From assembly GCA_017630395.1 (NCBI GenBank), contig JAGBVI010000128.1:1-41177 (forward strand): DNA of 41,177 nt, written 5' to 3'. Source of the DNA: Paludibacteraceae bacterium. GTDB taxonomy: Bacteria; Bacteroidota; Bacteroidia; Bacteroidales; Paludibacteraceae. Each line of letters begins with the position of its first letter. The first letter of the stretch is position 1. Position numbers and translations under genes: made by a program. Positions 1-18,004 of this stretch are shown here, piece by piece. The notes under the pieces were generated by a model. That model made no database searches, had not been told where the DNA came from, and saw only the letters and a list, made by a program, of their open reading frames with translations.

Positions 1-10
1 GCAAGTGTCA

Positions 11-132
11 GCCTGCAAAATGGCCTATTGAGCATTTTCAAAAGTAAATTTTGCATTTCAAAGATTTGAAATGGCCACATCACCTGTGTTTATCGGGGAT
101 ATGGCCATGTCGTAGCCTGCAAATTGACCTAT
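11..132. repeat. Imperfect direct repeat pair upstream of the giant gene
   Basis: An 18-base unit at 11-28 (gcctgcaaaatggcctat) recurs at 115-132 (gcctgcaaattgacctat) with two mismatches. The shorter string aaatggcc also occurs at 18-25 and 69-76. All three frames between 1 and 134 contain stops, so this is non-coding or decayed DNA. It could be the edge of a mobile or recombining element, but no transposase, terminal repeat or target duplication can be seen because the window starts here. Confidence 0.5.
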
Positions 133-3100: not shown

Positions 3101-6100
3101 AGTTTCGGTTAGCAGCAATATTTTTGAGGTAACTGGAAAAGATCGAGTAAAAGTAGGAACAATCTATTTTGCTGATGGTGGTGAGAAGACGATTCTTTAT
3201 GTCTGCAAAGGGGCAGAAGGAGAGTTAACAATGAAAGTTGATGGGGTTGCAACAGACAATGTAGCAACGTATCAATGGTATCAAATGGTGGCAGGAGGCA
3301 ATGATTGGGAGAAAGTAACGGTTGAAGGAACTACCGTTGGTACGAAATCGGCCGAGTGTACAATAGATCTGGATAACTATAGTTCAAGTACTATGTTTAG
3401 GTTAGGTATCACAGATAAATGTAGTGGGGAAGAGTTTTTTTCTGAAAATAACATTTGGCTTAAATACAATGAGGGCGTTCGCTTAAATCCGGAAGAGATT
3501 ATGGTTTCTAATGGAGTGATATATGATAATGCAAGTGGATTGGCTTCCATTCGATTGACGGTCAGAAACGACTATAATAGCACCTATTATTGGACAAAAG
3601 ATTCTGAGTTGCGTGAAGATTGGCTGGAAGGGAATCCGGTGGTCATCAACGGACCTTTTGTTGGAGAAAATTCTGTTTATGTTTACAAACAAACGAATGG
3701 GAAGGGAAATTGTTTGTCAGATACGATTGAATTATCTTTTAATGCATTTGCCAAATTGACAGCAGATCCTCTCTTCCTTAATAACTCTTCTCCGATCTGT
3801 AAGGCTGATGATAACTCATTCACTTTCAGTTTAAATTCGATTGTAGGAGGAGATGGACATTATGAGGTTGAATGGTATTATAAATCCGATAATATGGGTG
3901 GTTTTGTTTTGTTGGATACGTTGAGTATTGATACAGCTTTGTTCCATTACGAAGGCAGCACAATTAGTTATGGGATTTTAGGAGCTACGGCACAACTACG
4001 TCTTTCACATCTTACATCGTCAACAGAATTTTATGCCTTGGTGAAATCTGTTGGAGAGTATAGGGGGGCTCCTTATTTAACCAATACACTTCGCAAAGAG
4101 GTGTTTGCGCCTCTGCGTGATGGTGGAATTGATGTTTGGGGAGAATTGGAGTTGTGTTATGGAGAAGAATTAGGAGTGGTTATTGGTAAACCTGCTTCCG
4201 GAGGTAGTGGAGAATATAGCTATCAGTGGCAAGTTAATTCGCTTAATTCAAATGGAGAATTGGAGGGTTGGAAGGATATTACTATGGCTGAATCTCAAAA
4301 CTTCAACAAGAGGTATCCGATGTTTTCCGGTGGAAAGATTCGAAGACGCATTTCCGACAGAAATTGTAAAACAGAATTATTATCTAAACAAGAGTTGATG
4401 GTTAGGGTGAATGAAGAGGTGAAAATTTCTTCAAGTGATTTAGGATATACCCCTTATATAGCTAATGGTGCTAGTGCAAATATGTGGGGTAAATCTCAGA
4501 ATTACAGTTATATATGGTATGATGCAAATAATATTCCTTGTGACACAACAGAGTGGACAGAAAATTTTGTCACACCTTCCATTATGAATTCTCCAACGGT
4601 CTATTATGTGGCGTCGCTGGCAAAGAATGGATGTATTTCATCTAATAGGGATACAATTTTAATATCTACTTATATGGTTGATGGTGGGCATTTGACTTTT
4701 GATAATTTTGATAATTCGGATTCAAATTATTGGATTTGCAGTGGACAATCTGCCGGAAAAATCTCTTCTGATGGAATAGAAGACTCCTTGAGTGGGCACA
4801 CCTATGAGTGGTATTATAGGGTAAACGATTCTAATGAAAGCAATAAAAGTTTGGGGGTTTATACTTTTGATATCGACTTGGATAAGTGTAAATTGGAACA
4901 AACTCTTTTTACCAACAGTTCGTTGGGTGGAACATTAGAAAAAAAGGTCTCTTTCTATCGAATCACTCGTTTTAATGTTAATAATAACGGAGTGATGGAA
5001 TCTCGTGCAGTTAGTTCTGATACTTTGTCATTGTATGTTGTTCCAACTCTCTCTTTGGTGGAATCAAAAATGTGGGAAGGTGAAAGTCTGGCAGGTGAGT
5101 TATTGATGGAAGATGGGAATAATTTCTGTTTTGGTGAATCTGCAAAGGTCAAAGTTCATATTTCAGATTCTTTGTATAAATTTTGGGAATCAGGCTATTA
5201 TGGGCCAAAACAGTATGATAGATATTCTGCGCATTTTTCTACTTGGGTAGAATATTTGCCAAGTAATAAAATTTCTCAAGGCGGGTGGATTGTTGATGAG
5301 AAAAGTCGGTTGGAAAATGATGCAATTGGTGCTTGGATGATGCAAGATTTATCATCAAATTATTATGTCCAATTTGCGTTTTCAGATGGTTGTTCTACCA
5401 CCTATTCGGATTATGTTCGTGTTGCCTTGTCAAACAGGGTGGCTGATTCTTCTGAAATTAGTTGCTTTGCCGTAACTCCTGAAGGGGAAAAGATAACGCA
5501 GGGATTTGAGTATGGAGATAGTCTTGTTGTCAGGTATGGAGATCTGTTATATGATTGTTATTGGTTTGGGAATTCATCTTTGACAGATACTTTGTCTAAA
5601 GGGGGATATTCATACGGAACAATCATATCAGACAAGACTCCGACAGAAATCTTCTTAACACGTTATGATTCGGAGAAGAGTTGCATGTCTCAGAGCATAG
5701 CGATTAACCTTCCTCTTTACTCTAAAAGTGAGGGTGGGAAATTGGCCTACGTTGGAGAGACATTGTTGTGTAGAGCAGACAGTTTTAAGGGAATAGTAAA
5801 TGTTAAAGAGGCTTCCGGAATGATGATTTCACCAAGTTTTGGTCAGGAAAGGAGCTTCGTTTATCAATGGCAAGTGGCAACAGATGCTCTTGGGAAACAA
5901 TGGAAAGATATACCAATGGCAACTGATTTAGACCTCTCTTCCGAAAAGATAAATTCACTGGCCTCCCATGATGTTAGCAGTTACATGTTCAGACGAAAGG
6001 CAACTAATGAATGCGGAAGAGTCTCTTTTTCAGATACAATTACTCTTCGTTTCTATGATGATTTCTTGCCGGGAACAATCTCTTATCCTTCTCCTAAAGA

Positions 6101-9100
6101 TGCATTTTGTACCACAGATTCTTTCCCTACGTTATCTTCAACAACACCGGTTGGAGGTATTTGTGGCATGGATGGAATTGGTTATCAATATAAGTGGCAG
6201 TACTCCTTAGATGGAATAGAATTTGTTGATTTACAGAATTATACACGTTATGGAACTGAGATAGACTTGAATTTGTTGCTTCGTTCACAATCCATTCTAA
6301 TGTTGGATTTTAGTAAGGTCAATAATCTATTCTTTAGAGCAATGTACAGAGATGGAAATAATGGTTGTGGTGAGGTAATTAGTAATGTGCTAAAAATAAA
6401 GATTTGGGAAGAACCGAAGGCTCCAAGTATATATCAGGACAACGAGAGTTGTGATACAAACGAGGTTTTAGTGCGTGTTCATAATACGGGAGATTATACT
6501 CACTCATGGTATATGCTCGACCAAGATGGGAATATGAAATGGGCTTCTGTTGTTGCAGATTCTATGGAGATTAAGCGCATAACAGATGTGGCAGAGGTAA
6601 CATCATACGGCGTTCGTGCTGAATCAAATATATCGGGTTGCCCTTCTCCGATTACCTATTTTGATGTGGACTCATTGCCAAAATTAGCTCAAGAAACTAT
6701 TTTGCAACCAGAACAGCCTTTGTGTTTCAACTCTTATTTAAGGGTAGATGGAGGTGATGTCCATGGAGGAAATGGCGAAAAGAATTTCGAGTGGCAATAT
6801 TCATACAACAATGTAGATTTTGAAAGTTTCAGTTTAGATGAACATTTAGAAGTCCTTAACGTAAAATCGGATGTCTATTATAGACGGATTGTTAATGACA
6901 TTTGTGCAAGTGACACATCCAATGTGATTAAGGTCGAGGTGAAAAAAGAACTTCTCTTGGAGAATCCTAATCTCTTTGTTTTGTCTGACTATAAGTGTAA
7001 AAATAGAAATTTCAATATCTCGATAGAACCATCAGATTTTGACTCAATTTTTTCCCTATATCAGGCTGCCGGTTTTCAGTCGGTTGTTATCGAAATTTAT
7101 GATGAAGAAAAAATCTGTGGAATCTTTGGATCGTCAAAACATGCCGTTACATTGGATGGGTTTGCGGAGGATAGCAAGCAATATGATTTGCTTTTGGTGG
7201 CTCTCGATTCATTAGGAAATCGTTGTGAAAGCGAGCCTTTGAAAATTGAGGCACATACTGCACTCTCTCTGAATGATTCCCGTAATTCAATCTCTTGCGA
7301 TGAACCCTCTCCATGTAGTCAAACAATTGTTCATGTTGATGGAGAATTCCCTTCTGTTTCTGAAGATGTAGAGCATATCTATTTTTCATGGTATCGTTCA
7401 AGTGATAACAATTCATGGACTCAAATCTTATTGCAAAATGAGAAAGATATTTATATAGCCATCGAGGATACTCTTTATCTTAAAAGAAGTGTTTCAAATG
7501 GATGTGATACGTTGTGGAGTAATGTCTTGTCATTTGTAGCTCAACCATTGGTAGAAGTAGATTATGTAACAGAATTATCAATGGAAATTGTCACACAACT
7601 AACTGATGAGCAGGATTCCGTTGTTCTATATACGCGTAGTAAAGAGATTGAGACAGAGTATGAGTTTGTTGGAGATGGAGAATTACCTTTGTTATTGTAC
7701 GGATCTCAAAAATTACCTTATTCGGCAAGTTTGTACAAAGATTCTTTATTGAAAATTCAAAAAAGAGGAGACTGTTACTCAAATTATAGAATCGTTCCGC
7801 TGAGAGGAGGAAGAATTCACAGCGACAAAGCAATTAAAGTTTGCAAAGGCGAGGAGATGCCAAGTTTTGTTGTTACGGATGTAGAAGGCGGAGTAGGAGA
7901 GTACACCTATCAATGGCAATACCGAAATGAGTACTTTTCTCGACCGGAATATGTAAACATTGAGGGGGCAACTGCTAAGGAGTATAAGCCTCAAGTTATA
8001 GATGTAAAAACGTGGTATAGACGCATTACACGTTCCGGTGAATATATTCTTTATAGTAATGAAGTGGAGGTCTCTTTACAAGAAGAGCCACAGGTAGGAA
8101 CAATTGTTCTACTTCAAGATTCCTCCTATTTCCAAGAAAAAGGATTGGAATTTTCTGAGTGCTATGCTCAAAAAACACCTGATTTATCTATCACTTTGAG
8201 TTCAAATATTGTTAATGCAACAAAAGCCTATTGGCAGTATAGTGAAGATAATGTTAGTTGGGAGACGCTTTCATTCCCAATTAAAATTGAAGTTGATACC
8301 GTGTTGACTATTTCTGTTAAAGATAGTTTTCAAGTGAGATACTATAGATTAGTTGTTGAAAATCAATGTAGTATAGAATATTCAGAAGGATTCAAACTAA
8401 TTACGTTAAATGATGTTCCTCCTATTCTTGAAAAACATATTCAACTCGTTCAAAAAGCGCTATGTCTTGGAGACGAATGTCAAATAAGAATTGGGGATTA
8501 CTTAAATTATTCAGATCAGCCTACATGTTCAGGTGATTATGCCTATCGAGTTGAAGGGTATGATGAAATCTATCTTCACTTAAAAAAATACACAGAAGGA
8601 GAGTTAATCAGGCCAAAGGGAGATTTTGTTTTGACCTTAAAAAATGTCACACAACCTATAGAGTTGACAATCGAAAGAGTATCTGAAAAAACGGGAATTA
8701 CATCAGCAATTACATATTCATTAGATTTTGAATTATTCGAAGCCGATTTTGAATTCTCTGTATTGACGCAAAATAATGAGATTCGTTATAATGCATCGGC
8801 AGATAATGTAGAGATTGAACAAGGAGCTTTGGTTCAGTTCTTTAATACAACAGAACAGAAACTACAATCCATTGGGTGGCTTTTAATTGACTCAAAAGAT
8901 TACGAAGAGGAGAGTGACATAGACTTAAGTGCAAAGGGACTCTATTCGTATAAAGATTCTCCTCTTTCCTATTTTTATAATGGAGGAAGATATACTGTGA
9001 CAATGTATGCAATTTCTGAATTTGGCTGTAAAGATACTGTTCGCTCTTCAGCACTTTACATTCCATGGGAGAGTGTACGAAGTGGTGAAAATGGAGCAGG

Positions 9101-9371
9101 ATTTTTTGAAAATGAAGTGGAAGTAGAGGAGTGGATAGAGCAGCATCAGATTTCAGAACCGGTAGTTTATCCCTCACTTTTTGACTCTTGGATAAAAGTT
9201 CATTATCCAGAGAAACGATTCCGTTACACTTTATACGATGAGGTAGGACGAAAACTTATTGAGGGAGAAGGAGAATCCTCTTTGGAGCTTCATTTAGAAT
9301 ATTTGTGCAGTGGAAATTACGTGTTAGAAGTAGGTGAATATTGGTTTAAATTGGTGAAGGTTTATAATTAG
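192..9371 (+). CDS. Giant Ig/PKD-like repeat surface protein with T9SS sorting domain, 5' end abnormal
   Basis: About 3,059 residues. A motif of the form hydrophobic-Cys-x-Gly-Glu-Glu recurs at least 13 times (near residues 409, 699, 897, 1003, 1201, 1320, 1514, 1644, 1858, 1970, 2176, 2549, 2756). Many copies are followed by GGxGxYxYQWQ-type strands (near 315, 715, 1340, 1890, 2000, 2200, 2570), as in SprB/PKD-like Ig domains of Bacteroidetes surface proteins. The last ~70 residues (YPSLFDSWIKV, YDEVGRKL, SGNYVLEV, FKLVKVYN) match a type-A T9SS sorting domain, so the protein is probably exported through the T9SS and anchored or released at the surface. The start is doubtful: 192 is a TTG, the first in-frame ATG is at 255, the frame is open only back to 135, and there is no signal peptide, which a T9SS cargo needs. 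The gene is therefore probably truncated or rearranged at its 5' end. Adhesin is a plausible role; function is not shown. Confidence 0.85.
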   Translation: MCIPKSLIQEDIVYCFRQYAVMNNFGGIKVYSTAANKTVNVTRYSSLKKELFSSPDFSPTCSGMIYDDLLKLEFHPESGAVYSSLKNDNPNHFLYTVKSNIASLNGDFVTSELSLPFYEELLDAKSISIEVKDGCNNSVTIDKSIIVNPLPSFSKQDISVMGATITNATSGLSEELKVSSQGNFTLFIEDNEPNMRFYIYYLTDQKDAEGAYIWDNGKPIGANGHLISSSIKDRKWFKENNSRGIKIVKVDNKNTTNCESSPIYLSISYKGSLYNNIISFSQNVPNDADSIQYLCSTDASPYIVGSEVLGGYGAEGTYSYQWQYSNDNQTWMNMQTVDGKFVVSESLKEGAWNKPMHTSYFIRRKCYSHIDINDTESYISGVSNVLKIAPRSIPNFEVRVNSEQKESLNVCYGSNLELSVSFENDSILKVQGILDLHPNYIYINSASDTIEFSQLDLSNFMVTDTILVKSYLDYCGEKIYSSNSILVRPYDDLLKDLSVVYGDCMVRGERASIHINSPKYKESNYGYVFIGDNQNQIDTVLGVSCNNILLPEKGSKSYSIFVKSDVGCMQEKEFRIENSEMDNPLLHSKLTIEMQNSAGSRVVDDTFFVCAASPLTIIDEIPQEENPSISYVWNINNGANINKNFSSLVSSGNYFNMPEQLYRVVRTSSDINNCRRVLDTVFIKTLGEVEQVELSLSKAAVCYGEEVDFVVKAHGGSGDYRYKWSIGGTQISNEDSLSNRLHLEALSDAGTQEVKVTVSDNICLHSMAYNVTETAYIEVEKDLTFSITSEPAFVDEGDISGGKLKDVLLMIHPGPSGDELKLGDSLLVDGVPTIFDGTLNIQVGSADFVNHLATVPITRFSTSKRCSSSSAIAIPLSDGFDGMPIVESDLSGLLPTTVCAGEEVSLALSSLPHYNNQPLNMEHVSYVWYRGNAQNQWANVGDGETITVSANPGITDRYYAKLTYEVEGRKVSVSSNIFEVTGKDRVKVGTIYFADGGEKTILYVCKGAEGELTMKVDGVATDNVATYQWYQMVAGGNDWEKVTVEGTTVGTKSAECTIDLDNYSSSTMFRLGITDKCSGEEFFSENNIWLKYNEGVRLNPEEIMVSNGVIYDNASGLASIRLTVRNDYNSTYYWTKDSELREDWLEGNPVVINGPFVGENSVYVYKQTNGKGNCLSDTIELSFNAFAKLTADPLFLNNSSPICKADDNSFTFSLNSIVGGDGHYEVEWYYKSDNMGGFVLLDTLSIDTALFHYEGSTISYGILGATAQLRLSHLTSSTEFYALVKSVGEYRGAPYLTNTLRKEVFAPLRDGGIDVWGELELCYGEELGVVIGKPASGGSGEYSYQWQVNSLNSNGELEGWKDITMAESQNFNKRYPMFSGGKIRRRISDRNCKTELLSKQELMVRVNEEVKISSSDLGYTPYIANGASANMWGKSQNYSYIWYDANNIPCDTTEWTENFVTPSIMNSPTVYYVASLAKNGCISSNRDTILISTYMVDGGHLTFDNFDNSDSNYWICSGQSAGKISSDGIEDSLSGHTYEWYYRVNDSNESNKSLGVYTFDIDLDKCKLEQTLFTNSSLGGTLEKKVSFYRITRFNVNNNGVMESRAVSSDTLSLYVVPTLSLVESKMWEGESLAGELLMEDGNNFCFGESAKVKVHISDSLYKFWESGYYGPKQYDRYSAHFSTWVEYLPSNKISQGGWIVDEKSRLENDAIGAWMMQDLSSNYYVQFAFSDGCSTTYSDYVRVALSNRVADSSEISCFAVTPEGEKITQGFEYGDSLVVRYGDLLYDCYWFGNSSLTDTLSKGGYSYGTIISDKTPTEIFLTRYDSEKSCMSQSIAINLPLYSKSEGGKLAYVGETLLCRADSFKGIVNVKEASGMMISPSFGQERSFVYQWQVATDALGKQWKDIPMATDLDLSSEKINSLASHDVSSYMFRRKATNECGRVSFSDTITLRFYDDFLPGTISYPSPKDAFCTTDSFPTLSSTTPVGGICGMDGIGYQYKWQYSLDGIEFVDLQNYTRYGTEIDLNLLLRSQSILMLDFSKVNNLFFRAMYRDGNNGCGEVISNVLKIKIWEEPKAPSIYQDNESCDTNEVLVRVHNTGDYTHSWYMLDQDGNMKWASVVADSMEIKRITDVAEVTSYGVRAESNISGCPSPITYFDVDSLPKLAQETILQPEQPLCFNSYLRVDGGDVHGGNGEKNFEWQYSYNNVDFESFSLDEHLEVLNVKSDVYYRRIVNDICASDTSNVIKVEVKKELLLENPNLFVLSDYKCKNRNFNISIEPSDFDSIFSLYQAAGFQSVVIEIYDEEKICGIFGSSKHAVTLDGFAEDSKQYDLLLVALDSLGNRCESEPLKIEAHTALSLNDSRNSISCDEPSPCSQTIVHVDGEFPSVSEDVEHIYFSWYRSSDNNSWTQILLQNEKDIYIAIEDTLYLKRSVSNGCDTLWSNVLSFVAQPLVEVDYVTELSMEIVTQLTDEQDSVVLYTRSKEIETEYEFVGDGELPLLLYGSQKLPYSASLYKDSLLKIQKRGDCYSNYRIVPLRGGRIHSDKAIKVCKGEEMPSFVVTDVEGGVGEYTYQWQYRNEYFSRPEYVNIEGATAKEYKPQVIDVKTWYRRITRSGEYILYSNEVEVSLQEEPQVGTIVLLQDSSYFQEKGLEFSECYAQKTPDLSITLSSNIVNATKAYWQYSEDNVSWETLSFPIKIEVDTVLTISVKDSFQVRYYRLVVENQCSIEYSEGFKLITLNDVPPILEKHIQLVQKALCLGDECQIRIGDYLNYSDQPTCSGDYAYRVEGYDEIYLHLKKYTEGELIRPKGDFVLTLKNVTQPIELTIERVSEKTGITSAITYSLDFELFEADFEFSVLTQNNEIRYNASADNVEIEQGALVQFFNTTEQKLQSIGWLLIDSKDYEEESDIDLSAKGLYSYKDSPLSYFYNGGRYTVTMYAISEFGCKDTVRSSALYIPWESVRSGENGAGFFENEVEVEEWIEQHQISEPVVYPSLFDSWIKVHYPEKRFRYTLYDEVGRKLIEGEGESSLELHLEYLCSGNYVLEVGEYWFKLVKVYN

Positions 9372-9578: not shown

Positions 9579-9609
9579 TTTGTAAGATTGAAATTTTGTA
9601 CTACTTTTG
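9579..9609 (+). promoter_or_regulatory. Bacteroidetes-type promoter for the tra operon
   Basis: TTTG at 9579-9582 is followed after exactly 19 bases by TACTTTTG at 9602-9609, matching the Bacteroidetes primary sigma-factor consensus TTTG-N19-TAnnTTTG. It lies 72 bases before the first ATG of the operon (9682). The 310-base gap between the giant gene and that ATG (9372-9681) otherwise holds only the hairpin and very AT-rich DNA. Confidence 0.75.
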
Positions 9610-9681
9610 TAGTGATAAATAACTACATGTACATGAGAGAGTTTTTGTTTGTATTCTGATGAATATTTTGTGGTGTTGATA

Positions 9682-9924
9682 ATGGTTCAAGAGAGAACGT
9701 TTAAAATTATAAAAACAATGTTTGGATTGTCAGAAATCGCTTGGTTGGATTTCCTGTTCGTTGATGTTATTGTTTGCTTGTGTTTGGATATTATGATGTC
9801 AATCTGTGTTTGTTGCATGTCGGGCGAAAAGGATTCAATCAATAAATTAAGAAAGAAAAAATCGTTATCCGGAGTTGAGTCTAATGAAAAAGTTAGTCTT
9901 GATGAGGAAGTAGTAAATAATTAA
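9682..9924 (+). CDS. Small membrane protein leading the tra operon
   Basis: Eighty residues from ATG 9682. A TTG start at 9649 would add 11 residues, but ATG is preferred in this phylum and better placed after the promoter. A hydrophobic, Cys-containing segment (about residues 20-46) is followed by a charged, Lys-rich then acidic tail, so it is probably a single-span inner-membrane protein. It ends 10 bases before traE and should be co-transcribed with it. I do not recognise the family; it does not resemble the TraA-TraD proteins that usually precede traE in Bacteroides elements. A role in assembling or regulating the secretion channel is only inferred from position. Confidence 0.65.
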   Translation: MVQERTFKIIKTMFGLSEIAWLDFLFVDVIVCLCLDIMMSICVCCMSGEKDSINKLRKKKSLSGVESNEKVSLDEEVVNN

Positions 9925-9934
9925 TAGTTTAAAT

Positions 9935-10234
9935 ATGAAAAAAAGATTATTAAATTTAGTTTGTTTTTTGTTTGTAGTTTGTGAGGCATTTTCTCAAAAA
10001 CAAGCCTCAGAGGCGTTAAAAGCAGCCAATACTCAATTGGACAAGATGGTTTCACCGGCATTAACTTTGTTTATGTCTGTTTGTGGTTTATTTGCATTGG
10101 TAGGCGGTGCTGTTGTGGCCTATAAAATGTTTAATGGAGATAATGACTCAGCTAAAAAAATCGGAGGTTGGGTCGGCGGACTTGTTATTGCTTGCGTTGT
10201 TTCTATGGTTGTAAAAAATTTCTTTTTTGCTTAA
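9935..10234 (+). CDS. traE: TraE, DUF4134 pilin-like conjugation protein
   Basis: Ninety-nine residues: an N-terminal signal peptide (about 1-20, ending near AFSQ), a short helix, then two hydrophobic segments (about 41-64 and 75-96) separated by a Gly/Lys-rich turn. This is the DUF4134/TraE family of Bacteroidetes conjugative transposons, taken to be the VirB2-like pilin subunit. The stop codon abuts the ATG of traF, and the gene order E-F-G is that of CTnDOT-like elements. The family call is confident; pilus formation here is inferred. Confidence 0.9.
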   Translation: MKKRLLNLVCFLFVVCEAFSQKQASEALKAANTQLDKMVSPALTLFMSVCGLFALVGGAVVAYKMFNGDNDSAKKIGGWVGGLVIACVVSMVVKNFFFA

Positions 10235-10555
10235 ATGGAGTATCCCATTAACAAGGGGGTAGGACGATCATTTGAATTTAAAGGTTTACAAACCATTTAT
10301 GTTTTTATAGCCTTAGGGGGGATTGTAATTGGAGTTTTACTCTACTTTATCTTAGGTCTATTTCTTCCATTTGAAATCTCGATAATTGTGGTAGCAATTG
10401 TGGTGATTGGATGTGTTGGAGCTGCCTATTATCTAAATGGAAAGTATGGAGAAACCGGCTTACTGATGGAGCGAGGAGCTAGAAAACTTCATCAAAGAAT
10501 TCAGAATGACAGGCGTGTTCGTTCATTGATAATTAGAAAAGGAGATGAATTTTAA
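10235..10555 (+). CDS. traF: TraF, DUF4133 VirB3-like protein
   Basis: A 106-residue protein starting with MEYPINKGVGR, a typical DUF4133/TraF opening. Two adjacent membrane segments (about 22-42 and 47-68) are followed by a basic cytoplasmic tail (RGARKLHQRIQNDRRVRSLI). TraF is regarded as the VirB3 counterpart that works with the VirB4-type ATPase. The ATG follows the traE stop with no gap, and the 3' end overlaps traG by 11 bases, so translation is probably coupled. Confidence 0.9.
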   Translation: MEYPINKGVGRSFEFKGLQTIYVFIALGGIVIGVLLYFILGLFLPFEISIIVVAIVVIGCVGAAYYLNGKYGETGLLMERGARKLHQRIQNDRRVRSLIIRKGDEF

Positions 10556-13049
10556 TATAAAGAGTAATTTGATAGAGAAGGTTTTCCCATTATGGAAGTT
10601 GGATGGGGGATTTCTTATTTCAAAGTCTTCTGATGTAACTATTTGTTTAGAATTGACTTTAATCGAGTCGTTCACTTCTGATGTTGATAGATACAAAACT
10701 TTGCACAATTGTTTTGTATCTGGAATGAGAGATTTTCCCAATTATACAATAATACATAAACAGGATATTTATACATACTCAAAAGTAGATTTACAACAAA
10801 GAGGAGACTCGTTTTTAAGTTCAGCTTATGCTTCTCATTTTCAGGGAAGATCTTTTCTATCTCATCGCTCTTTTCTTTTCATCACCCTTTCTTGTAAAGC
10901 GAATATGGAGACTACATCTGTTTTGTCTTCTTTATGTCGAAATCGGTTAATACCGAAAGAACAAATGGATGAAAATAGGTTGAATGATTTCACTCAAGCT
11001 GTTTCTCGGTTTATACAGATTTTGTCGGATAATGGTATCTATGTAAGACGGATAGAAGATAGTGAACTTTTGGGAGATGATTTGCAATTAGGAATTATTG
11101 AGCAATATTTAAATCTAAAATTTTCCGGAGGGACTGTTTTGAGCGATCTACATGTTGAGGATGGATGTCTTATGATCGGAGATAATTATGTATCTTGTCA
11201 TTCAATCGCAGATTTAGATGCAGTTCCATCTTTTGTTTGCAGTTGTTCAAATAATTCCAAATTGTCAAGTCCTCCCAATTTTCATGTACCGCAAAGTTTT
11301 ACAGCGGATTTAGGATTGTCTTTGAACTGCGAGCATATCTTCAATCAATATTATTTTTTGGACGATGACAAAAAAATTCTTGATTCGATTCGCCAAAAAG
11401 GAAAATTACAACAGGCTTTTTCTAATGCATCTAGAGCGAATAGTTTGAATTTGCAGCGTAATATGGAGTTTTTGGATGAAGCATATGAAGGGCAAAAAAG
11501 AGCTGTAAAATGTGCCTTTAATGTAATTACTTGGGATAAGAATTGGAATAAGTTGTTGGATAAGAATGCTCTGGTTGAGGCTGCAATGTCTAAAATTAAC
11601 TGCTGTACTAAAACAAAAACAGAAAAAATAGTTCCTCAAGTCTTTTGGGGAGGTATACCGGGAGCGGCGTCTCAATATCCGAAAGAATTAACTTTCTTGA
11701 CTTTTTTGGAGCAAGCTTGTTGCTTTCTAAACTTTGACACTAATTATAAGAACATGGTAGGTAGTTCTGATTTTGGAATCTATTTAACTGATAGATTGGC
11801 AGGAGTACCGGTGAGAATTGATTTAGATGATTATCCTAAAAAAATGGGGTGGATTGACAATCGTAACAAGGTGATTATTGGTCCATCTGGTTCGGGAAAA
11901 TCTTTCTTCACGAACAATTTAGTAAGGCAATATTGGGAACAGGGTTGTCATGTCGTTTTAGTCGATGTGGGTGATTCTTATCAAGGTCTTTGTCATTTGA
12001 TCAATGAAGAAACGAATTCCGATGATGGTTTATATTTTACTTATACTGAGGATAAACCACTATCTTTTAATCCCTTCTATGAGAAAAATTATGAGTACTC
12101 GGAGGAGAAAAAAGAACAGTTGCTCTCTCTTATAAAAACTTTATGGAAGGGCGATATGGGATTAAGTAATACTGAGTCCACTCATATCAAAGTGGCAATT
12201 TATAATTACATTGATGCTGTTTGCGATGATCGTTCTATCACTCCTTGTTTTGATACTTTTTATCACTATCTTATATCAACCTTTAAACCATATATCCAAA
12301 ATGAGCTGTGCGTAAGAGTCGAGAATTTTGATGTGGACGATTTGATACAAGTTTTAAAACCTTTTGAATCCGGAGGAATGTTTGGGCATTTATTGAATTC
12401 AAAGGAGGAGCTGAATTTGCTTGAGAAAAGATTTATTGTTTTTGAGCTAGATAACATTAAAGATAATAAAACTCTTTTCCCTATTGTAACTTTAATCATC
12501 ATGGCTACTTTTATGGATAAGATAAGACGTTTGCCATCGGATCAGCGAAAATTGATGTTAATTGAAGAGGCTTGGCAAGCTATTGCCAAAGAGGGTATGG
12601 CAACTTTTATCGGTTATCTTTATAGAACGGCAAGAAAACATTTTGGTGAAATCGCTATCGTTACTCAAGAACCTGATGACTTGGTAGGGAATAAATTTAT
12701 TAAAGATATTATGATTACTCAGTCTCATTGTAAAATCTTATTAGACTTGAGAGATTTTAAGGAAAAGGTGTCAATCATTCAAGAAATTTTGTCCCTATCG
12801 AAAAAAGAGCAAAACATCCTGTTTTCTGTAAACAATAATCTGAATTTTACTTCTCGTTCTCGTTACAAAGAGGTCTTTATTTCACTGAGAAATTTTTGTG
12901 CTGTTTATGGTGTGGAAGTTAGTGATGAGGAGTATTGTACCTTTACAACTGATAAAGAAGAAAAAGGAAGATTGCACAATCTTATGAGAGAAAATGGGAA
13001 TAGTATTTTGAAAGCTATTCCTTGTTATATTAAACAATTTAAATCATGA
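10545..13049 (+). CDS. traG: TraG, VirB4-family conjugation ATPase
   Basis: An 834-residue protein, the normal length for Bacteroidetes TraG. Walker A is GPSGSGKS at about residues 446-453 and the Walker B region is LMLIEEAWQAIA near 670-681. An ARKHFGEIAIVTQEPDDL stretch follows, as usual in the VirB4/TraG family. It should be the inner-membrane/cytoplasmic motor that powers pilus assembly and substrate transfer. Despite its name it is VirB4-like and not the VirD4-type coupling protein, which is absent from this window. No frameshift or lost catalytic motif is visible, so the ATPase looks functional. It overlaps traF at its start and traI (ATGA, 4 bases) at its end. Confidence 0.95.
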   Translation: MNFNIKSNLIEKVFPLWKLDGGFLISKSSDVTICLELTLIESFTSDVDRYKTLHNCFVSGMRDFPNYTIIHKQDIYTYSKVDLQQRGDSFLSSAYASHFQGRSFLSHRSFLFITLSCKANMETTSVLSSLCRNRLIPKEQMDENRLNDFTQAVSRFIQILSDNGIYVRRIEDSELLGDDLQLGIIEQYLNLKFSGGTVLSDLHVEDGCLMIGDNYVSCHSIADLDAVPSFVCSCSNNSKLSSPPNFHVPQSFTADLGLSLNCEHIFNQYYFLDDDKKILDSIRQKGKLQQAFSNASRANSLNLQRNMEFLDEAYEGQKRAVKCAFNVITWDKNWNKLLDKNALVEAAMSKINCCTKTKTEKIVPQVFWGGIPGAASQYPKELTFLTFLEQACCFLNFDTNYKNMVGSSDFGIYLTDRLAGVPVRIDLDDYPKKMGWIDNRNKVIIGPSGSGKSFFTNNLVRQYWEQGCHVVLVDVGDSYQGLCHLINEETNSDDGLYFTYTEDKPLSFNPFYEKNYEYSEEKKEQLLSLIKTLWKGDMGLSNTESTHIKVAIYNYIDAVCDDRSITPCFDTFYHYLISTFKPYIQNELCVRVENFDVDDLIQVLKPFESGGMFGHLLNSKEELNLLEKRFIVFELDNIKDNKTLFPIVTLIIMATFMDKIRRLPSDQRKLMLIEEAWQAIAKEGMATFIGYLYRTARKHFGEIAIVTQEPDDLVGNKFIKDIMITQSHCKILLDLRDFKEKVSIIQEILSLSKKEQNILFSVNNNLNFTSRSRYKEVFISLRNFCAVYGVEVSDEEYCTFTTDKEEKGRLHNLMRENGNSILKAIPCYIKQFKS

Positions 13050-13660
13050 AAAAATTACTTTATTCTTTTTGTTTGGCGATTATTTTGCATTTAAATACGT
13101 ATGCGCAAGGAGCTATGGTTATTTCTGATCCAGCATCTGTGGCTCAGCGGTTTGTGTTGGCTACCGAAGAAATGACAGAACAAATTGAGCAGAAATATAA
13201 GTTTATCGAACAGATTGATCTTGCTAGAAAAGCATTAGATCAGAGCCGAAAATTACAGCAAAATATCGAAATTGTTTCCTCTTTCGTGAAGAGTGCTCAA
13301 GAGGTGGTGGATATTATTTCTGAAGGGGAGAATATTGTGCGAAATTTTAAATCTATGCAAAATGCAATTTTTAAGTCAGACCTCCTTAGCAACGATGAAA
13401 AATTTATGTGTATTGCTGAAATGATTAACTGTTGCGATAACATCAATGAAATTTCAAAAAAAGCAACTGCAGTTGTTTCTGATAAGAATGCAGATAAAGG
13501 CGTGACATTATCTGATTTTGAGCGTCTTCAAGAACTTAGAACATTGAAGAGGGAGATGGAAATGACTTCGGATGAAATGAATGATATTTATCTTAGGTAT
13601 TTGTCTCCTTATGTTTCTACGAATAGAGAAGATTTTCTGTTTTCTTTTATAAATTTTTAA
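13046..13660 (+). CDS. traI: TraI, DUF4141 periplasmic conjugation protein
   Basis: A 204-residue protein with a cleavable signal peptide (about 1-20, NTYAQGA) followed by a long, largely helical, charged region. Position right after traG, length and the helical periplasmic layout fit the DUF4141/TraI family of Bacteroidetes conjugative transposons. It may play a VirB5-like role, but that equivalence is not firm. The start overlaps the traG stop as ATGA. This TraI is unrelated to the F-plasmid relaxase of the same name, so it does not supply a relaxase. Confidence 0.85.
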   Translation: MKKLLYSFCLAIILHLNTYAQGAMVISDPASVAQRFVLATEEMTEQIEQKYKFIEQIDLARKALDQSRKLQQNIEIVSSFVKSAQEVVDIISEGENIVRNFKSMQNAIFKSDLLSNDEKFMCIAEMINCCDNINEISKKATAVVSDKNADKGVTLSDFERLQELRTLKREMEMTSDEMNDIYLRYLSPYVSTNREDFLFSFINF

Positions 13661-13663
13661 AGT

Positions 13664-14755
13664 ATGAATAACGAATCTACTATTAACCTTTCCTCTTTGT
13701 TTTCTAACAAGTTTGCTGAGAATCTATTTAATGGATGCTTGGAAAAACTTTCAGGATTAACAGAATTGTGTTTTTTTCTGTGTGGTATGTTTGCTCTTGT
13801 TTATTTGGGAAATTTATTAATGAAAACCTGGGTAAAAGGGAGTCCGATTGATTTTTCGGTGCTTATTCGTCCTTTCATTATCGGAATTGTTATTATGAAC
13901 TTCTCATTGGTATATAATCTTGTTGATGGTATTTTGTCGCCTATAAATGCTTATACAGAGAATTTGGCATTAGATAGAAAGGAATTGATGAAAGAGAAAG
14001 AAAAGCTGGTGGATGTAAGAGCTGAGTTTAGAGAAAAAGAGGCTGCTTTGGAACAAGAAGGAACAACCTTTTGGAGCAATATTTTTAAAGTGAGTTCTGT
14101 GACAACTTTTTTTGAACATTTATTGGATAATTGCATTAATCTTTTTCTGGAGTCATTGGAATACTTTGCTTCAATTATTTTTGGTGCTATAAAGTTGACT
14201 CTCAGAGTGGTGAGTTATGCTTTCCGAATTATTTTAATTGTTTTGGGTCCTTTTGCTTTTGCTATGTCTGTCTTGCCTGCTTTTAAAGGGAATTGGGTCT
14301 CTTGGGTGGGGAAATATATTAATGTTTGTTTATTTATTCCTATCGCAAATATCATGGATGTGATTATTAATAAGTTGAATGTATTGTTGATAAGCACTCA
14401 TATTGATTATTATAAAGAAGCAATTACAGCATTGACAGACTCTACGTCAAGTGTAGATTCTGCTTTGATGTCTATAACTATATCATACATTATTTTCTTA
14501 ATTGCTTTTATCGTCTTATACTTGATGATTCCGAATATTGCTTCTTACGTAGTTAGTGCTGGTACGATGGAAGGTCTTATGGGGGGAATTACTATTGCTG
14601 GGTCAGCTGCTGCGGCAAAAATGATTGGTGGTGCCTCAAGTTCCGGTTTGCCTTCAAATGTGCTGAAGTTCTTTAGAAAAGCGAAGGGTGGAAAGGTTAT
14701 TTTTCAACCTCAAATTAAACAAGAGGTCTTACCCAAAAATGTGCAACAATGTTAA
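13664..14755 (+). CDS. traJ: TraJ, VirB6-like polytopic membrane protein
   Basis: 363 residues with several membrane segments (about 34-55, 68-86, 160-180, 183-205, 215-235, 265-295), a charged coiled stretch at about 100-130 (KELMKEKEKLVDVRAEFREKE broken over that region) and a Gly/Ala-rich segment near 302-328. This matches TraJ of Bacteroidetes conjugative transposons, the VirB6-like channel component in the inner membrane. It starts 3 bases after traI and its last 7 bases overlap traK. Confidence 0.9.
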   Translation: MNNESTINLSSLFSNKFAENLFNGCLEKLSGLTELCFFLCGMFALVYLGNLLMKTWVKGSPIDFSVLIRPFIIGIVIMNFSLVYNLVDGILSPINAYTENLALDRKELMKEKEKLVDVRAEFREKEAALEQEGTTFWSNIFKVSSVTTFFEHLLDNCINLFLESLEYFASIIFGAIKLTLRVVSYAFRIILIVLGPFAFAMSVLPAFKGNWVSWVGKYINVCLFIPIANIMDVIINKLNVLLISTHIDYYKEAITALTDSTSSVDSALMSITISYIIFLIAFIVLYLMIPNIASYVVSAGTMEGLMGGITIAGSAAAAKMIGGASSSGLPSNVLKFFRKAKGGKVIFQPQIKQEVLPKNVQQC

Positions 14756-15369
14756 AAAGTTTGAGAAATATTCAAGGGGCATTTGCGCTCTCTCGATTCT
14801 ATTTGATTGGAATTACTCTTCTCTCTTTGGGAGTGTCGGCTTATGCGATATTTCAATCCTATCAATTTGCTGAAAAACAGAGAGAAAAAGTTTACGTTTT
14901 AGATAATGGGAAATCTTTGATGTTGGCTCTTTCGCAGGATGTTTATATGAATAAACCGGCTGAGGCCAAAGCTCACCTTAAATGGTTTCATGAGTTATTC
15001 TTTACTTTAGCTCCTGATGGTGCTGCTATCGAAGATAACGTGAAACAGGCTCTGTTCTTGGCTGATAATTCTGCCCTTGAATTTTATAAAACTCGTCAGG
15101 AAAGTGGCTATTACCAAAAAATGATTGGTGCAGGAATCATTAATGAAATTCGCATCGATTCAATTTGCCTGAATATGGATGTATATCCTTATACGGCTAA
15201 GACTTATGCGGTGAGTTCTATCATGAGAAGATCTTCTATCTCTTATTACAGACTTATTACTTCTTGTGAATTGGTCAATTCTCCCCGTTCAGACAATAAT
15301 CCGCATGGTTTTATTATTAATAATTGGCAGGTGAATGATATGACTGAAATTAAAAGTGTTCAACGATAA
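14749..15369 (+). CDS. traK: TraK, VirB8-like conjugation protein
   Basis: A 206-residue protein with one N-terminal membrane segment (about 17-36) and a periplasmic domain. The N-terminal region, QREKVYVLDNGKSL and ISYYRLITSCELVNSPRSDNNPHG with a terminal NNW, are typical of TraK. It is the VirB8-like scaffold linking inner-membrane parts to the VirB9/10 proteins. It overlaps traJ by 7 bases and is followed by traL after 15 bases. Confidence 0.9.
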   Translation: MLKSLRNIQGAFALSRFYLIGITLLSLGVSAYAIFQSYQFAEKQREKVYVLDNGKSLMLALSQDVYMNKPAEAKAHLKWFHELFFTLAPDGAAIEDNVKQALFLADNSALEFYKTRQESGYYQKMIGAGIINEIRIDSICLNMDVYPYTAKTYAVSSIMRRSSISYYRLITSCELVNSPRSDNNPHGFIINNWQVNDMTEIKSVQR

Positions 15370-15384
15370 TATATTCTCTATTTT

Positions 15385-15702
15385 ATGAATGATTTAAAAG
15401 AAAAATTGTCGGAGTATTTAAACAAAATTCCGGTTGTTGAAAGAAAAACATACGTTATTCTTCTTTGTTCTTTATTGATTCTGGGTTTTGCAACTAAGTC
15501 TGTGATAAAAATTGTGCGTACATCTGAGGGGTGGGAAAACTTATCGACAGGAGATAATCAGACGATTTCTCAAGATCAATTAGATGCACTTAGTAGTGAA
15601 CTTAATCGTGTTCACGACCATTTTTCAGCCTCTAGAGATTCTTTTTTGATGTTAGTGGATGGGATGGATACACTTAATATACGGAAAAATGATGAAAATT
15701 GA
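15385..15702 (+). CDS. traL: TraL, small membrane conjugation protein
   Basis: A 105-residue protein with one membrane segment (about 24-41) after a charged N-terminus and a polar periplasmic tail with a predicted helix. Size, topology and position between traK and traM identify it as TraL of the Bacteroidetes cluster; sequence conservation in this family is low, so the call rests mainly on position. Its 3' end overlaps traM by 14 bases. Confidence 0.8.
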   Translation: MNDLKEKLSEYLNKIPVVERKTYVILLCSLLILGFATKSVIKIVRTSEGWENLSTGDNQTISQDQLDALSSELNRVHDHFSASRDSFLMLVDGMDTLNIRKNDEN

Positions 15703-16831
15703 TGAGAAATTAAAAAGGAAATTGCTTATCGTTCAAGGGTGTACACTCTTTTTCTTTGTTGGCTTTTTGTCTCTTTTCTATATGCTGGGTGGAGGAGCAC
15801 AAGCGAATTATTCGGTTGAAGAAGTTGCATTAAATCTTGATACTTTGCCTGATGTAATGGTGGACGAAATTCCGAATGATAGGTTAGAGGCTTTCAGGCA
15901 GGCTACTCATCTACTGAAACAAGAGAAGGAGTTGGAAGAGGTAAATAATTCGTTTCTGTTTTTAGAAGAGGATGCGGAGAATGAGATGGATGTTTTGGAT
16001 ACAACTATTAACGAAAGTCTATTTGAGACCTTAAAAGAAGTGGTTGTTGGTTCTTCGGAAGATCCGATTATTCCCAATAGGAAACAAATTGCTCAAAGGG
16101 TTCCTCGAAGAGGGGAAAGTGGAAGTGCTATAAGAACTGCAAAGAATGAGACTTCGGAGGATTGGGAGGCAAAAATGCAAGCAGAAATTGCAGAAAGAGA
16201 ACGCAGGTTACAGGAGTTGTATTATGGCAAGAAGGTTGTGAATGAACCATTACAAACATCTTCTTCGACAGAAGATGAACCTACAGAAAATGAGAAAGAT
16301 GTAAAGATAACTAAAAATAAAAATGGCTTCAGAACTCTGGGTGTTTCAGGTAGTTCCACAACTCCCCAAGGGAGCGTTAGAGCTGTGATTCATGGAGAGC
16401 AAAAGGATATTACAGAATCCTCTCAAATTAAGTTAAGAATATTAGACCCGATTGAGGTTGATGGTTTTATGATTCCGCGTAATACAATCATTTTTGGCAT
16501 GGCTTCGTTTTCCGAGAATAGAGTGAATATTGATATTGAAAATATTGCATTCCGAAACAATATTTATCCTTTCAGAGGGAGAATATATGATCAAGATGGT
16601 TTCTTAGGAATTTATATTCCGGACAATTTGGTAAATGATGCTAAAACTGAGGCCTCAAGTGAGACTGTTTCTGCTGCGGATGTCAATTTTAGCGGACTTA
16701 CAGGAATTGTGAGTACCGGAGCCAATGCAATTGTTAATGCTGCAAAAAATGTTGTTACTGGGTCAATTCGTAGAACAAAAGTTACTTTGCCGGCTAACTA
16801 TAAACTAATAATAAAGACGAATGAAAAATAG
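15689..16831 (+). CDS. traM: TraM, VirB10-like conjugation protein
   Basis: A 380-residue protein from ATG 15689 (a second ATG follows at 15692); an upstream in-frame GTG lies deeper within traL and is less likely. A membrane segment at about 15-34 precedes a long charged linker (to about 220). The C-terminal domain (RAVIHGEQKDITESSQIKLR, then IPRNTIIFGMASFSENRVNI and YPFRGRIYDQDGFLGIYIP) is the conserved TraM core, VirB10-like. It should span from the inner membrane to the outer-membrane core. Its 3' end overlaps traN by 11 bases. Confidence 0.92.
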   Translation: MMKIDEKLKRKLLIVQGCTLFFFVGFLSLFYMLGGGAQANYSVEEVALNLDTLPDVMVDEIPNDRLEAFRQATHLLKQEKELEEVNNSFLFLEEDAENEMDVLDTTINESLFETLKEVVVGSSEDPIIPNRKQIAQRVPRRGESGSAIRTAKNETSEDWEAKMQAEIAERERRLQELYYGKKVVNEPLQTSSSTEDEPTENEKDVKITKNKNGFRTLGVSGSSTTPQGSVRAVIHGEQKDITESSQIKLRILDPIEVDGFMIPRNTIIFGMASFSENRVNIDIENIAFRNNIYPFRGRIYDQDGFLGIYIPDNLVNDAKTEASSETVSAADVNFSGLTGIVSTGANAIVNAAKNVVTGSIRRTKVTLPANYKLIIKTNEK

Positions 16832-17933
16832 GAAATTGTATTTATGTATATTTTTTTGTTTCTATTTCCCGGCTCTTTTTGCTGTCAATTTAGTAGGAAG
16901 TAAGACAGATTCGTTGGAAATTTCTGATACGAAATGGCTCTATCTGAAATTTAATAGTGACATTAAGTATGCTGATATGGGAACAGAAGATATTCGAATC
17001 GAAAAGAGTGTTATTCCTTCTATTCTTAGGATTAAAAGTGAAATTCCATATTTCGAAAGTACGAGTATTACAATTATCACTATGGATGGCATTGTCCATA
17101 CTTTTAAACTCAATTATGGAACCAATCTTCCCTTTATTGCTTTTCAAGTAAGTGACGTTCGTTCAGAAATTCCTTTTTATGAAATAGAACTTTCTCATAA
17201 GCAGACAAGTCATCTTATTTTTGATAAAAAAGTGGTGGAAGTTAGTGCCGGTGTAGATACAATTATTGCTGAACAAGCTGAGGGCATTGATAATGTTATA
17301 AAATGTAAATCTATAGCATCCGGGTTTGAGTCCTTTGACGAAACTTCTCTTACGATAGTTACAGAAGATGGGAACCTTTATCCTTTTGTTATTACCTATA
17401 AAGAATCTCCGGATGTTGTCAATTATAATATTTCGAATGAGAGTCAGGTGGAGGCTATTTTTTCAGACTATTCTTTGAGAGAACCTGAAATGAAAAATTT
17501 GGCTAAAAAGATATTAAAAGAGGGCACACAATTGAGAAATTTAGGAGTTATGGAGAATAAAATGGTTTTTGGACTTCGTTCGATATTTGTACATAATGAT
17601 GTTATGATGTTTTTTTTGGATGTCCAGAATAATTCTCAAGTGGATTATGAGATTGATTTTATCAAAAGTTACGTAATCAACAAAAGAACTTCTAAGAAAC
17701 AAGCATTTCAAACGGATGAAAAAAGCCCAATATATATTTATTCTGAGAGTGTGTCGGAACGGATTGCCGCAAAAGGTAGCTATTCGGTTGTCTTCTTTTT
17801 TAGGAGATTTACTATACCGGACAAGCATAATCTGTTCTTCGAACTCTTTGAAAAGAATGGAGGAAGACATATTAAGTTTACCGTACCTAATAAAGTTTTG
17901 CTAAATGCAAAACACCTATATTCAAAGCCTTAA
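16821..17933 (+). CDS. traN: TraN, DUF4138 VirB9-like conjugation protein
   Basis: A 370-residue protein with a signal peptide (about 1-21, ALFAVN) and a TKWLYLKFNSDIKYADMG segment near residues 33-50 that is characteristic of Bacteroidetes TraN. The C-terminal half carries NKMVFGLRSIFVHND, then FFLDVQNNSQVDYEID. TraN is the VirB9-like outer-membrane-core protein. This is the last gene of the operon: a terminator lies 38 bases on, so traO, traP and traQ, which normally follow, are absent. Confidence 0.92.
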   Translation: MKNRKLYLCIFFCFYFPALFAVNLVGSKTDSLEISDTKWLYLKFNSDIKYADMGTEDIRIEKSVIPSILRIKSEIPYFESTSITIITMDGIVHTFKLNYGTNLPFIAFQVSDVRSEIPFYEIELSHKQTSHLIFDKKVVEVSAGVDTIIAEQAEGIDNVIKCKSIASGFESFDETSLTIVTEDGNLYPFVITYKESPDVVNYNISNESQVEAIFSDYSLREPEMKNLAKKILKEGTQLRNLGVMENKMVFGLRSIFVHNDVMMFFLDVQNNSQVDYEIDFIKSYVINKRTSKKQAFQTDEKSPIYIYSESVSERIAAKGSYSVVFFFRRFTIPDKHNLFFELFEKNGGRHIKFTVPNKVLLNAKHLYSKP

Positions 17934-17971
17934 CTATGTAAATATATATTTTGAAACTAAACAGGTTTGTG

Positions 17972-18004
17972 AAAGTCTTGCAAGGGATTGTAGGGCTTTT
18001 TTTT
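17972..18004 (+). terminator. Terminator of the tra operon
   Basis: aaagtcttgcaa and ttgtagggcttt can pair over 12 bp (several G-U) around a ggga loop and are followed by a run of eight T. This is a good intrinsic terminator 38 bases after the traN stop codon. Confidence 0.75.

What the first reader, a model, noticed from the sequence alone, without database searches (positions are those of the whole stretch)
9579..18004. Orphan type IV secretion pore: traE-traN operon without relaxase, coupling protein or integrase
Seen: one promoter, nine contiguous tra genes in CTn order with overlapping starts and stops, all intact, closed by a terminator, then housekeeping genes (thiL, porE, thyA). Known: in CTnDOT-like elements traE-traN are part of traA-traQ and need mob and VirD4 genes for DNA transfer. 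Here traA-D and O-Q and all DNA-processing genes are absent from the window. Inference: either a deletion remnant kept intact by chance, or a pore adopted to export protein, take up DNA or build a surface fibre. Intact frames with clean coupling favour retention by selection.
Basis: partly seen in the sequence, partly recalled or inferred. Interest (0 to 1): 0.75.

Follow-up and report, generated by a model that had tools for sequence, protein, structure and literature searches.

The report
Domesticated conjugation pore with giant surface protein
A gut Bacteroidales bacterium keeps the transport machine of a conjugative element as an ordinary chromosomal operon, without the parts that move DNA, next to genes for a giant surface protein; relatives keep the same set, so it has probably been given another job.

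Summary
The operon is real: nine intact genes, traE-F-G-I-J-K-L-M-N (9935-17933), after a Bacteroidetes-type promoter match and closed by a terminator-like hairpin. The own genome (99.8% complete) has no VirD4-type coupling protein and no PF03432 relaxase. It is not a lone remnant: near-full-length traG (47% identity or more) is in 13 of 16 genus genomes, traG distances track rpoB distances within two clades, and seven of the eight tra genes that could be scored against the nearest relative have dN/dS 0.03-0.14 (traL 0.53).

'Orphan' is partly wrong. On contig C31 of the same genome lie a TraO-like outer-membrane gene, a lipoprotein gene (F17) and the start of the giant gene whose remaining 3059 codons open the window. 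This trio recurs with this kind of T4SS, and in a second genus stands in line with the tra genes. The giant protein ends in a type IX secretion sorting domain.

Best reading: a host-owned, MOB-less MPF_B type IV secretion system combined with a T9SS-exported giant surface protein, for contact-dependent attachment or transfer other than conjugation. Retention under selection is well supported; cargo and target are inference. DNA uptake (ComB-like) is the main rival. In this genome an insertion-like sequence seems to interrupt the giant gene.

The parts
192..9371 (+). C-terminal 3059 codons of the giant surface protein gene ('BIG', 3455 aa in G006); T9SS-type C-terminal domain; the upstream part is on contig C31
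   Evidence: CTD profile-profile match to an alignment of two Por_Secre_tail domains, probability 96.5, E 7.9e-10
1..128 (.). non-BIG sequence at the contig edge, with a short motif repeated in inverted sense at the C31 edge; looks like the end of an inserted element
   Evidence: homology to the G006 gene starts at base 129 of the window and at base 142 of C31; the two homologous parts overlap by 18 bases
9579..9609 (+). Bacteroidetes-type promoter match TTTG-N19-TANNTTTG (consensus recalled)
   Evidence: 5 in window, 2.3 expected
9718..9924 (+). small membrane protein (one helix, by eye) in the traD position; ORF listed from 9649; relatives in the four other clade-A genomes
   Evidence: weak profile similarity to clade-B protein F12 (hhalign probability 71)
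9935..10234 (+). traE, pilin-type gene (DUF4134; VirB2-like role recalled and)
10235..10555 (+). traF (DUF4133; VirB3-like role recalled and)
10545..13049 (+). traG, VirB4-like ATPase
13046..13660 (+). traI by position; predicted helical, weak VirB5 match (E 0.004)
13664..14755 (+). traJ (VirB6-like; role recalled)
14749..15369 (+). traK (VirB8-like; role recalled)
15385..15702 (+). traL by position
15659..16831 (+). traM (VirB10-like; role recalled); the G006 gene suggests a start near 15689
16821..17933 (+). traN (VirB9-like; role recalled), DUF4138
17971..18000 (+). terminator-like hairpin with T tail

Best explanation
A host-owned (domesticated), MOB-less type IV secretion system of the Bacteroidota class (MPF_B). 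TraE-TraN build an envelope-spanning channel with a pilin and one ATPase, the VirB4-like TraG. TraO (outer-membrane barrel), the lipoprotein F17 and the giant protein work with it at the cell surface; the giant protein is exported by the type IX system and acts as the adhesin that brings a target cell close. The machine then attaches to that cell and/or passes protein to it by a route that needs no VirD4-type coupling protein. Shown: gene content, no hit for VirD4-type coupling protein or PF03432 relaxase, low dN/dS, within-clade agreement of traG and rpoB, recurrent linkage with TraO-F17-giant protein, T9SS-type CTD. Inferred: adhesin role, contact dependence, protein cargo, target.
For: No coupling protein in the own genome by Pfam or by a 10-sequence profile that finds its controls G009, G013 and G014; no PF03432 relaxase, whereas the same model hits 5 of 16 genus genomes. 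traG of 47% identity or more in 13 of 16; rpoB/traG correlation r 0.93 in clade A (5 genomes, p 0.018) and 0.96 in clade B (6 of 8, p 0.013; G008 and G012 gave no rpoB). dN/dS against G006: F .14, G .04, I .04, J .03, K .04, M .13, N .07, L .53; clade-B pairs 0 to .27 where dS could be computed. F17 in 17 of 41 genomes, 15 of these among the 16 with a TraG of 40% identity or more. Two F17 copies in G012 and in G013, each with two TraG blocks. Twenty of the 30 other-genus genomes hit were looked at: the giant gene is beside F17 in 19 (one contig ends first), 8 have tra-traO-giant-F17 in line, and none has a coupling protein or relaxase within the 8-20 kb taken. Nine genomes, eight of them with a clade-B traG, have a coupling protein, 8 of 9 at a site with both flanks conserved (G009 shares one); 6 of these 9 have no PF03432 relaxase.
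Against: No substrate is known for clade A; the candidate pair F10-F11 has no hit in G000, G002, G004 and G006. In G000 the giant gene seems interrupted by an insertion; its ORF is split in G004 and G014 and in L204 and L216. G006 traE carries a 1-base deletion, real or an assembly error. G020 traG has an internal stop and the G004 traJ ORF is split. The genomes are drafts, several metagenome-assembled, so unbinned mobile genes could be missed. Clade A and B traG do not form one group: A joins G034, B joins G020 and the G012 second block (G034 and G012b are long branches), so more than one capture is likely. Co-occurrence has exceptions: G021 has three TraG blocks and no F17; G009 has a second, divergent TraG with no matching second F17 (a weak one); G003 and G014 have F17 without a TraG of that class. 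The 40% line was set after seeing the data. The linkage p-value treats loci as independent, which they are not.
Confidence: 0.5

Rival explanations
1. Domesticated DNA-uptake or DNA-exchange machine: like H. pylori ComB (VirB4 as only ATPase, no VirD4) or archaeal Ced/Ted, the pilus and channel bring DNA across the envelope, ComEC finishing the import.
For: ComB lacks VirB1, VirB5, VirD4 and VirB11 and is in the core genome (passages of PMC7366825); Ced/Ted are chromosomal derivatives of T4SS, and no relaxase homologues are known in those archaea (passages of PMC9905601). The clade-A set is alike in having one ATPase.
Against: The giant T9SS-type protein and lipoprotein are tied to the system, and also occur beside the G012 block that has relaxase and coupling protein on its contig, which fits cell contact better than free-DNA uptake. 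Clade B keeps a coupling protein. comEC and dprA were not looked for.
Confidence: 0.2
2. A surface fibre or adhesion organelle: TraE pilus plus giant protein, with no cargo.
For: Pilin and VirB4 kept, no coupling protein in four of five clade-A genomes, the fifth (G013) having one only beside its second T4SS; the constant partner looks like a surface protein.
Against: The channel genes traJ and traK are strongly constrained too (dN/dS .03-.04), more than a pure fibre would seem to need.
Confidence: 0.17
3. Helper pore for mobilizable elements that come and go and bring their own relaxase and coupling protein.
For: PF03432 relaxases occur in 5 of 16 genus genomes.
Against: None in the own genome. 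Within-clade agreement with rpoB and fixed partners suggest a host function.
Confidence: 0.08
4. Decaying remnant of a conjugative transposon, intact by chance.
For: Scattered defects: G006 traE deletion, G020 traG stop, G004 traJ split, split or interrupted giant genes.
Against: dN/dS .03-.14 for seven of eight genes and within-clade agreement with rpoB.
Confidence: 0.05

Closest known systems
CTnDOT-like conjugative transposons and MPF_B plasmids (e.g. Parabacteroides distasonis NZ_OY725747.1, Bacteroides ovatus NZ_CP081918.1)
   Same: Same tra gene order and families; TraG about 41% identical.
   Different: Those two carry mobA-mobB-mobC (relaxase and coupling protein), a ParA-type ATPase, DUF3408, traO and DUF3872 genes beside the tra genes; here no relaxase or coupling protein was found, and a giant T9SS-type protein and a lipoprotein join in.
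Protein-secretion T4SSs without coupling protein (Bordetella Ptl, Brucella VirB)
   Same: No coupling protein (named as exceptions in a passage of PMC12102498).
   Different: Those are MPF_T (recalled). Abby 2016 states that only MPF_I and MPF_T are known to include protein-secretion systems (passages of PMC4793230).
Helicobacter pylori ComB
   Same: One VirB4-type ATPase, no VirD4, core genome.
   Different: Other MPF class (recalled); no VirB5; no giant surface protein known to me; proven DNA uptake.
Archaeal Ced/Ted
   Same: Domesticated conjugation machinery on the chromosome, no relaxase.
   Different: Archaeal, few components, DNA import.
Patescibacteria T4SS
   Same: Widely retained, mostly without relaxase (passages of PMC12102498).
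   Different: Associated with MPF_FATA rather than MPF_B.
MOBless T4SSs of the 2011 survey (PMC3158045)
   Same: Channel without nearby relaxase; the survey puts only 33% of its MOBless T4SSs in proteobacteria (section 11), so MPF_B cases may already be counted there.
   Different: No MPF_B system is described there in the parts I saw; no surface partner.

Membership tests
MPF_B type IV secretion machinery | TraG-type VirB4 ATPase with TraE, F, J, K, M, N in order | tested here: met
   (TraJ below cut-off)
CTnDOT-type conjugative element | relaxase | tested here: not met
   PF03432: 0 of 1 own genome; other relaxase families not searched
CTnDOT-type conjugative element | VirD4-type coupling protein | tested here: not met
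   controls positive
CTnDOT-type conjugative element | linked integrase | tested here: not met
   PF00589 hits on 6 other contigs, none on C123 or C31; serine recombinases not searched
MOB-less (non-conjugative) T4SS | VirB-type channel genes without a relaxase | tested here: met
Protein-secretion T4SS | exports a protein | not testable with these tools
   needs experiment; no substrate identified
ComB-like DNA uptake | VirB4 as only ATPase, no VirD4 | tested here: met
ComB-like DNA uptake | ComEC/DprA present and transformation depends on the pore | not tested
T9SS cargo (giant protein) | C-terminal sorting domain | tested here: met
   profile comparison probability 96.5; no Pfam or NCBIfam sorting-domain hit on the single sequence

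The most novel reading that the evidence does not exclude
A T4SS-T9SS composite machine peculiar to Bacteroidales: a domesticated MPF_B channel whose target cell is caught by a giant T9SS-exported protein held by TraO and a lipoprotein, used to deliver proteins into neighbouring bacteria or rumen protists, with coupling-protein-dependent (clade B, perhaps exporting the multicopy F10-F11 pair) and coupling-protein-free (clade A, window) versions.
Probability: 0.3. Interest if true: 0.85.

Novelty: new variant of a known kind. Interest (0 to 1): 0.66.

Why it matters
If right, T4SSs with a dedicated non-conjugative job are not limited to the classes where they are known, and gut Bacteroidales own a contact machine that annotation calls 'conjugative transposon protein'. 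The link with a T9SS-type surface protein gives a testable idea of how MPF_B machines, conjugative ones included, recognise partner cells, since the G012 block with relaxase and coupling protein on its contig carries the same partner genes.

Tried and rejected
Decay remnant: rejected as main explanation by dN/dS and agreement with rpoB. Block still part of a mobile element: no coupling protein or PF03432 relaxase in the genome and no PF00589 hit on C123 (41 kb) or C31 (105 kb). F10-F11 as the effector of the window's system: no hit in G000. F11 as a DUF3945 protein: suspected by eye, not supported (hhalign probability 0.7, two DUF3945 sequences). F12 or the small 9718 ORF as TraD of CTns: no support. 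TraI as VirB5 by structure: a model of mean pLDDT 79 from 5 sequences gave only generic helical matches, no T4SS protein among the 50 rows shown by either search; inconclusive. Whole-genome searches of G000 covered PF02534, PF03432, PF00589, TraG, the G009 coupling protein, the F11, F17 and coupling-protein alignments and rpoB; other relaxase families, serine recombinases, traP/traQ, comEC and dprA were not searched. dN/dS for the wider clade-A pairs was mostly not computable (synonymous sites saturated) and traE was not scored against G006. Literature searches listed no paper that I recognised, from titles and abstract starts, as describing a domesticated MPF_B system. I saw passages of PMC4793230, PMC3158045 (its section 11 whole), PMC12857230 (one passage), PMC9905601, PMC12102498 and PMC7366825; the library lacks most subscription journals.
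Full report
What is there. The window is the whole of contig C123 (41,177 bp) of a 3.57-Mb draft genome, 99.8% complete. The four named records with the closest TraG are metagenome-assembled Bacteroidales/Paludibacteraceae, two with titles naming buffalo reticulum and horse faeces. Nine intact ORFs from 9935 to 17933 follow conjugative-transposon order and mostly overlap or nearly touch. Six pass a Pfam or NCBIfam cut-off, TraJ is below its cut-off, TraI and TraL are named by position. A promoter match and a terminator-like hairpin bound the unit; both scans also find chance matches, so these are suggestive.

Missing parts. The own genome has no PF02534 coupling protein, no PF03432 relaxase and no hit to a 10-sequence coupling-protein profile, which does hit the controls G009, G013 and G014 but not G002, G003, G004, G006, G020 or G022. 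The searches work in this group: PF03432 hits 5 and PF02534 11 of 16 genus genomes. Seven tyrosine-recombinase hits lie on six other contigs.

What lies left of base 1. F17, a lipoprotein by its N-terminus (by eye; no Pfam hit), was found near the T4SS in several relatives. Its profile hits G000 once, at the end of contig C31. There the order is TraO-like barrel gene, F17, then residues 1-381 of the giant protein; the window ORF covers residues 397-3455, numbered on the unbroken G006 gene. The G000 TraO-like protein matches only the general barrel model; its G002 homologue passes the TraO cut-off and the G008 homologue is just below it. Both contig edges carry foreign sequence (128 and 141 bases) with a shared motif in inverted sense, and the flanking homologies overlap by 18 bases: most likely an inserted element interrupts the gene in this genome and broke the assembly.

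The system across relatives. Near-full-length traG at 47% identity or more is in 13 of 16 genus genomes; G003 and G011 have no hit and G014 only a divergent one. Clade A is G000, G006, G002, G013, G004; clade B is G001, G005, G007, G008, G009, G010, G012, G015. TraG and rpoB distances correlate within A (5 genomes, r 0.93) and within B (6 of 8, r 0.96), but the clades are not sisters in the traG tree: A joins G034 (99/100), B joins G020 (100/99) and a second block of G012 (92/77); G034 and that block are long branches. So capture or replacement probably happened at least twice, followed by inheritance. Nine genomes (clade B plus G011, which has no traG hit) have a YWFCY/VirD4-like coupling protein. 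In eight it stands at one site with both flanks shared; in G009 one flank is shared and the tra operon is directly upstream. Six of the nine have no PF03432 hit.

The surface partner. F17 is in 17 of 41 genomes; 15 of these are among the 16 with a TraG of 40% identity or more, and 23 of 41 have neither (Fisher p 3e-8, or 0.0015 with the genus collapsed to one unit; the 40% line was drawn afterwards). Exceptions: G021 has TraG blocks with relaxase and coupling protein but no F17; G003 and G014 have F17 without such a TraG; G009 has a second, divergent TraG and one F17. Around the 19 F17 loci seen first, a giant gene is on the same stretch in all 19 and a TraO-like gene in 17 (not labelled in G009 and G020). 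Five genomes (G002, G003, G004, G013, G014) share one upstream flank of the trio; in clade B the flanks are shared only in part. A search of 300 family genomes finds F17 in 47, the weakest near E 1e-3 and doubtful. Of the 30 that are in genera other than those of G000, G020 and the already mapped G022 genome, I took 20: the giant gene is beside F17 in 19 (in L206 F17 is placed, in L211 a small ORF lies between; L208 ends first), eight stretches (L200-L205, L214, L218) have tra-traO-giant-F17 in line, a ninth (L217) has ORFs between, and eleven show at most traN. No coupling protein or relaxase is within any of the 20 stretches of 8-20 kb. All eight are in the genus of G022, which has the same order. 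The second block of G012, on an 83-kb contig that also has relaxase and coupling protein about 57 kb away, carries the same partners, so they may have served in mating contact first.

Selection. Against G006, dN/dS is .026-.137 for seven tra genes.53 for traL and .15 for the small 9718 ORF on five changes; clade-B pairs give 0 to .27. traE was not scored because G006 has a 1-base deletion there. Other defects: an internal stop in G020 traG, a split traJ ORF in G004, split giant ORFs in G004 and G014 and in L204 and L216. These may be assembly errors or real losses.

Mechanism. The parts predict a channel with pilin and VirB4 ATPase, an outer-membrane core (TraN, TraM; roles recalled) and a giant surface protein exported by the T9SS (sorting domain by profile comparison; one Ig_7 match below cut-off). 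Without VirD4, cargo would have to enter from the periplasm or by way of TraG (inference; Ptl, Brucella VirB and ComB also lack VirD4). The constant link with a surface protein favours a cell-contact function; cargo and target are unknown. Protein delivery or attachment is my best guess, DNA uptake the main rival.

Known or new. MOBless T4SSs are a known kind, and the 2011 survey places two thirds of its own outside proteobacteria (section 11 of PMC3158045), so MPF_B cases may have been counted before. Abby 2016 lists protein-secretion systems only in MPF_I and MPF_T. I found no description of a retained MPF_B system tied to a T9SS-type giant protein in the listings of my searches. I therefore call it a new variant of a known kind.

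Noticed in passing
L050:13869-15837 and other loci: Gene pair F10-F11 (about 179 + 486 aa; no Pfam match for F11): 27 near-full-length F11 hits in 10 of 41 genomes, clade B plus G011 and G013, several beside T4SS or F17 loci, one beside a second T4SS of G013. Possible substrate and partner.
   Followed up: partly
L085:9365-12037 (G007) and equivalents: Coupling protein gene at a conserved chromosomal site between OmpH-like and aromatic-amino-acid-lyase genes, 6 of 9 such genomes without a PF03432 relaxase.
   Followed up: yes
window 1-128 and L135 1-141: Insertion-like sequence apparently interrupting the giant gene in this genome.
   Followed up: partly
L063 (G013 contig C1): A second, divergent T4SS with coupling protein, F10-F11 and giant protein; no PF03432 hit on its 242-kb contig.
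   Followed up: partly
window 29935-31497: AAA-ATPase_like/PDDEXK_9 gene, a kind often multicopy in gut Bacteroidales (recalled).
   Followed up: no
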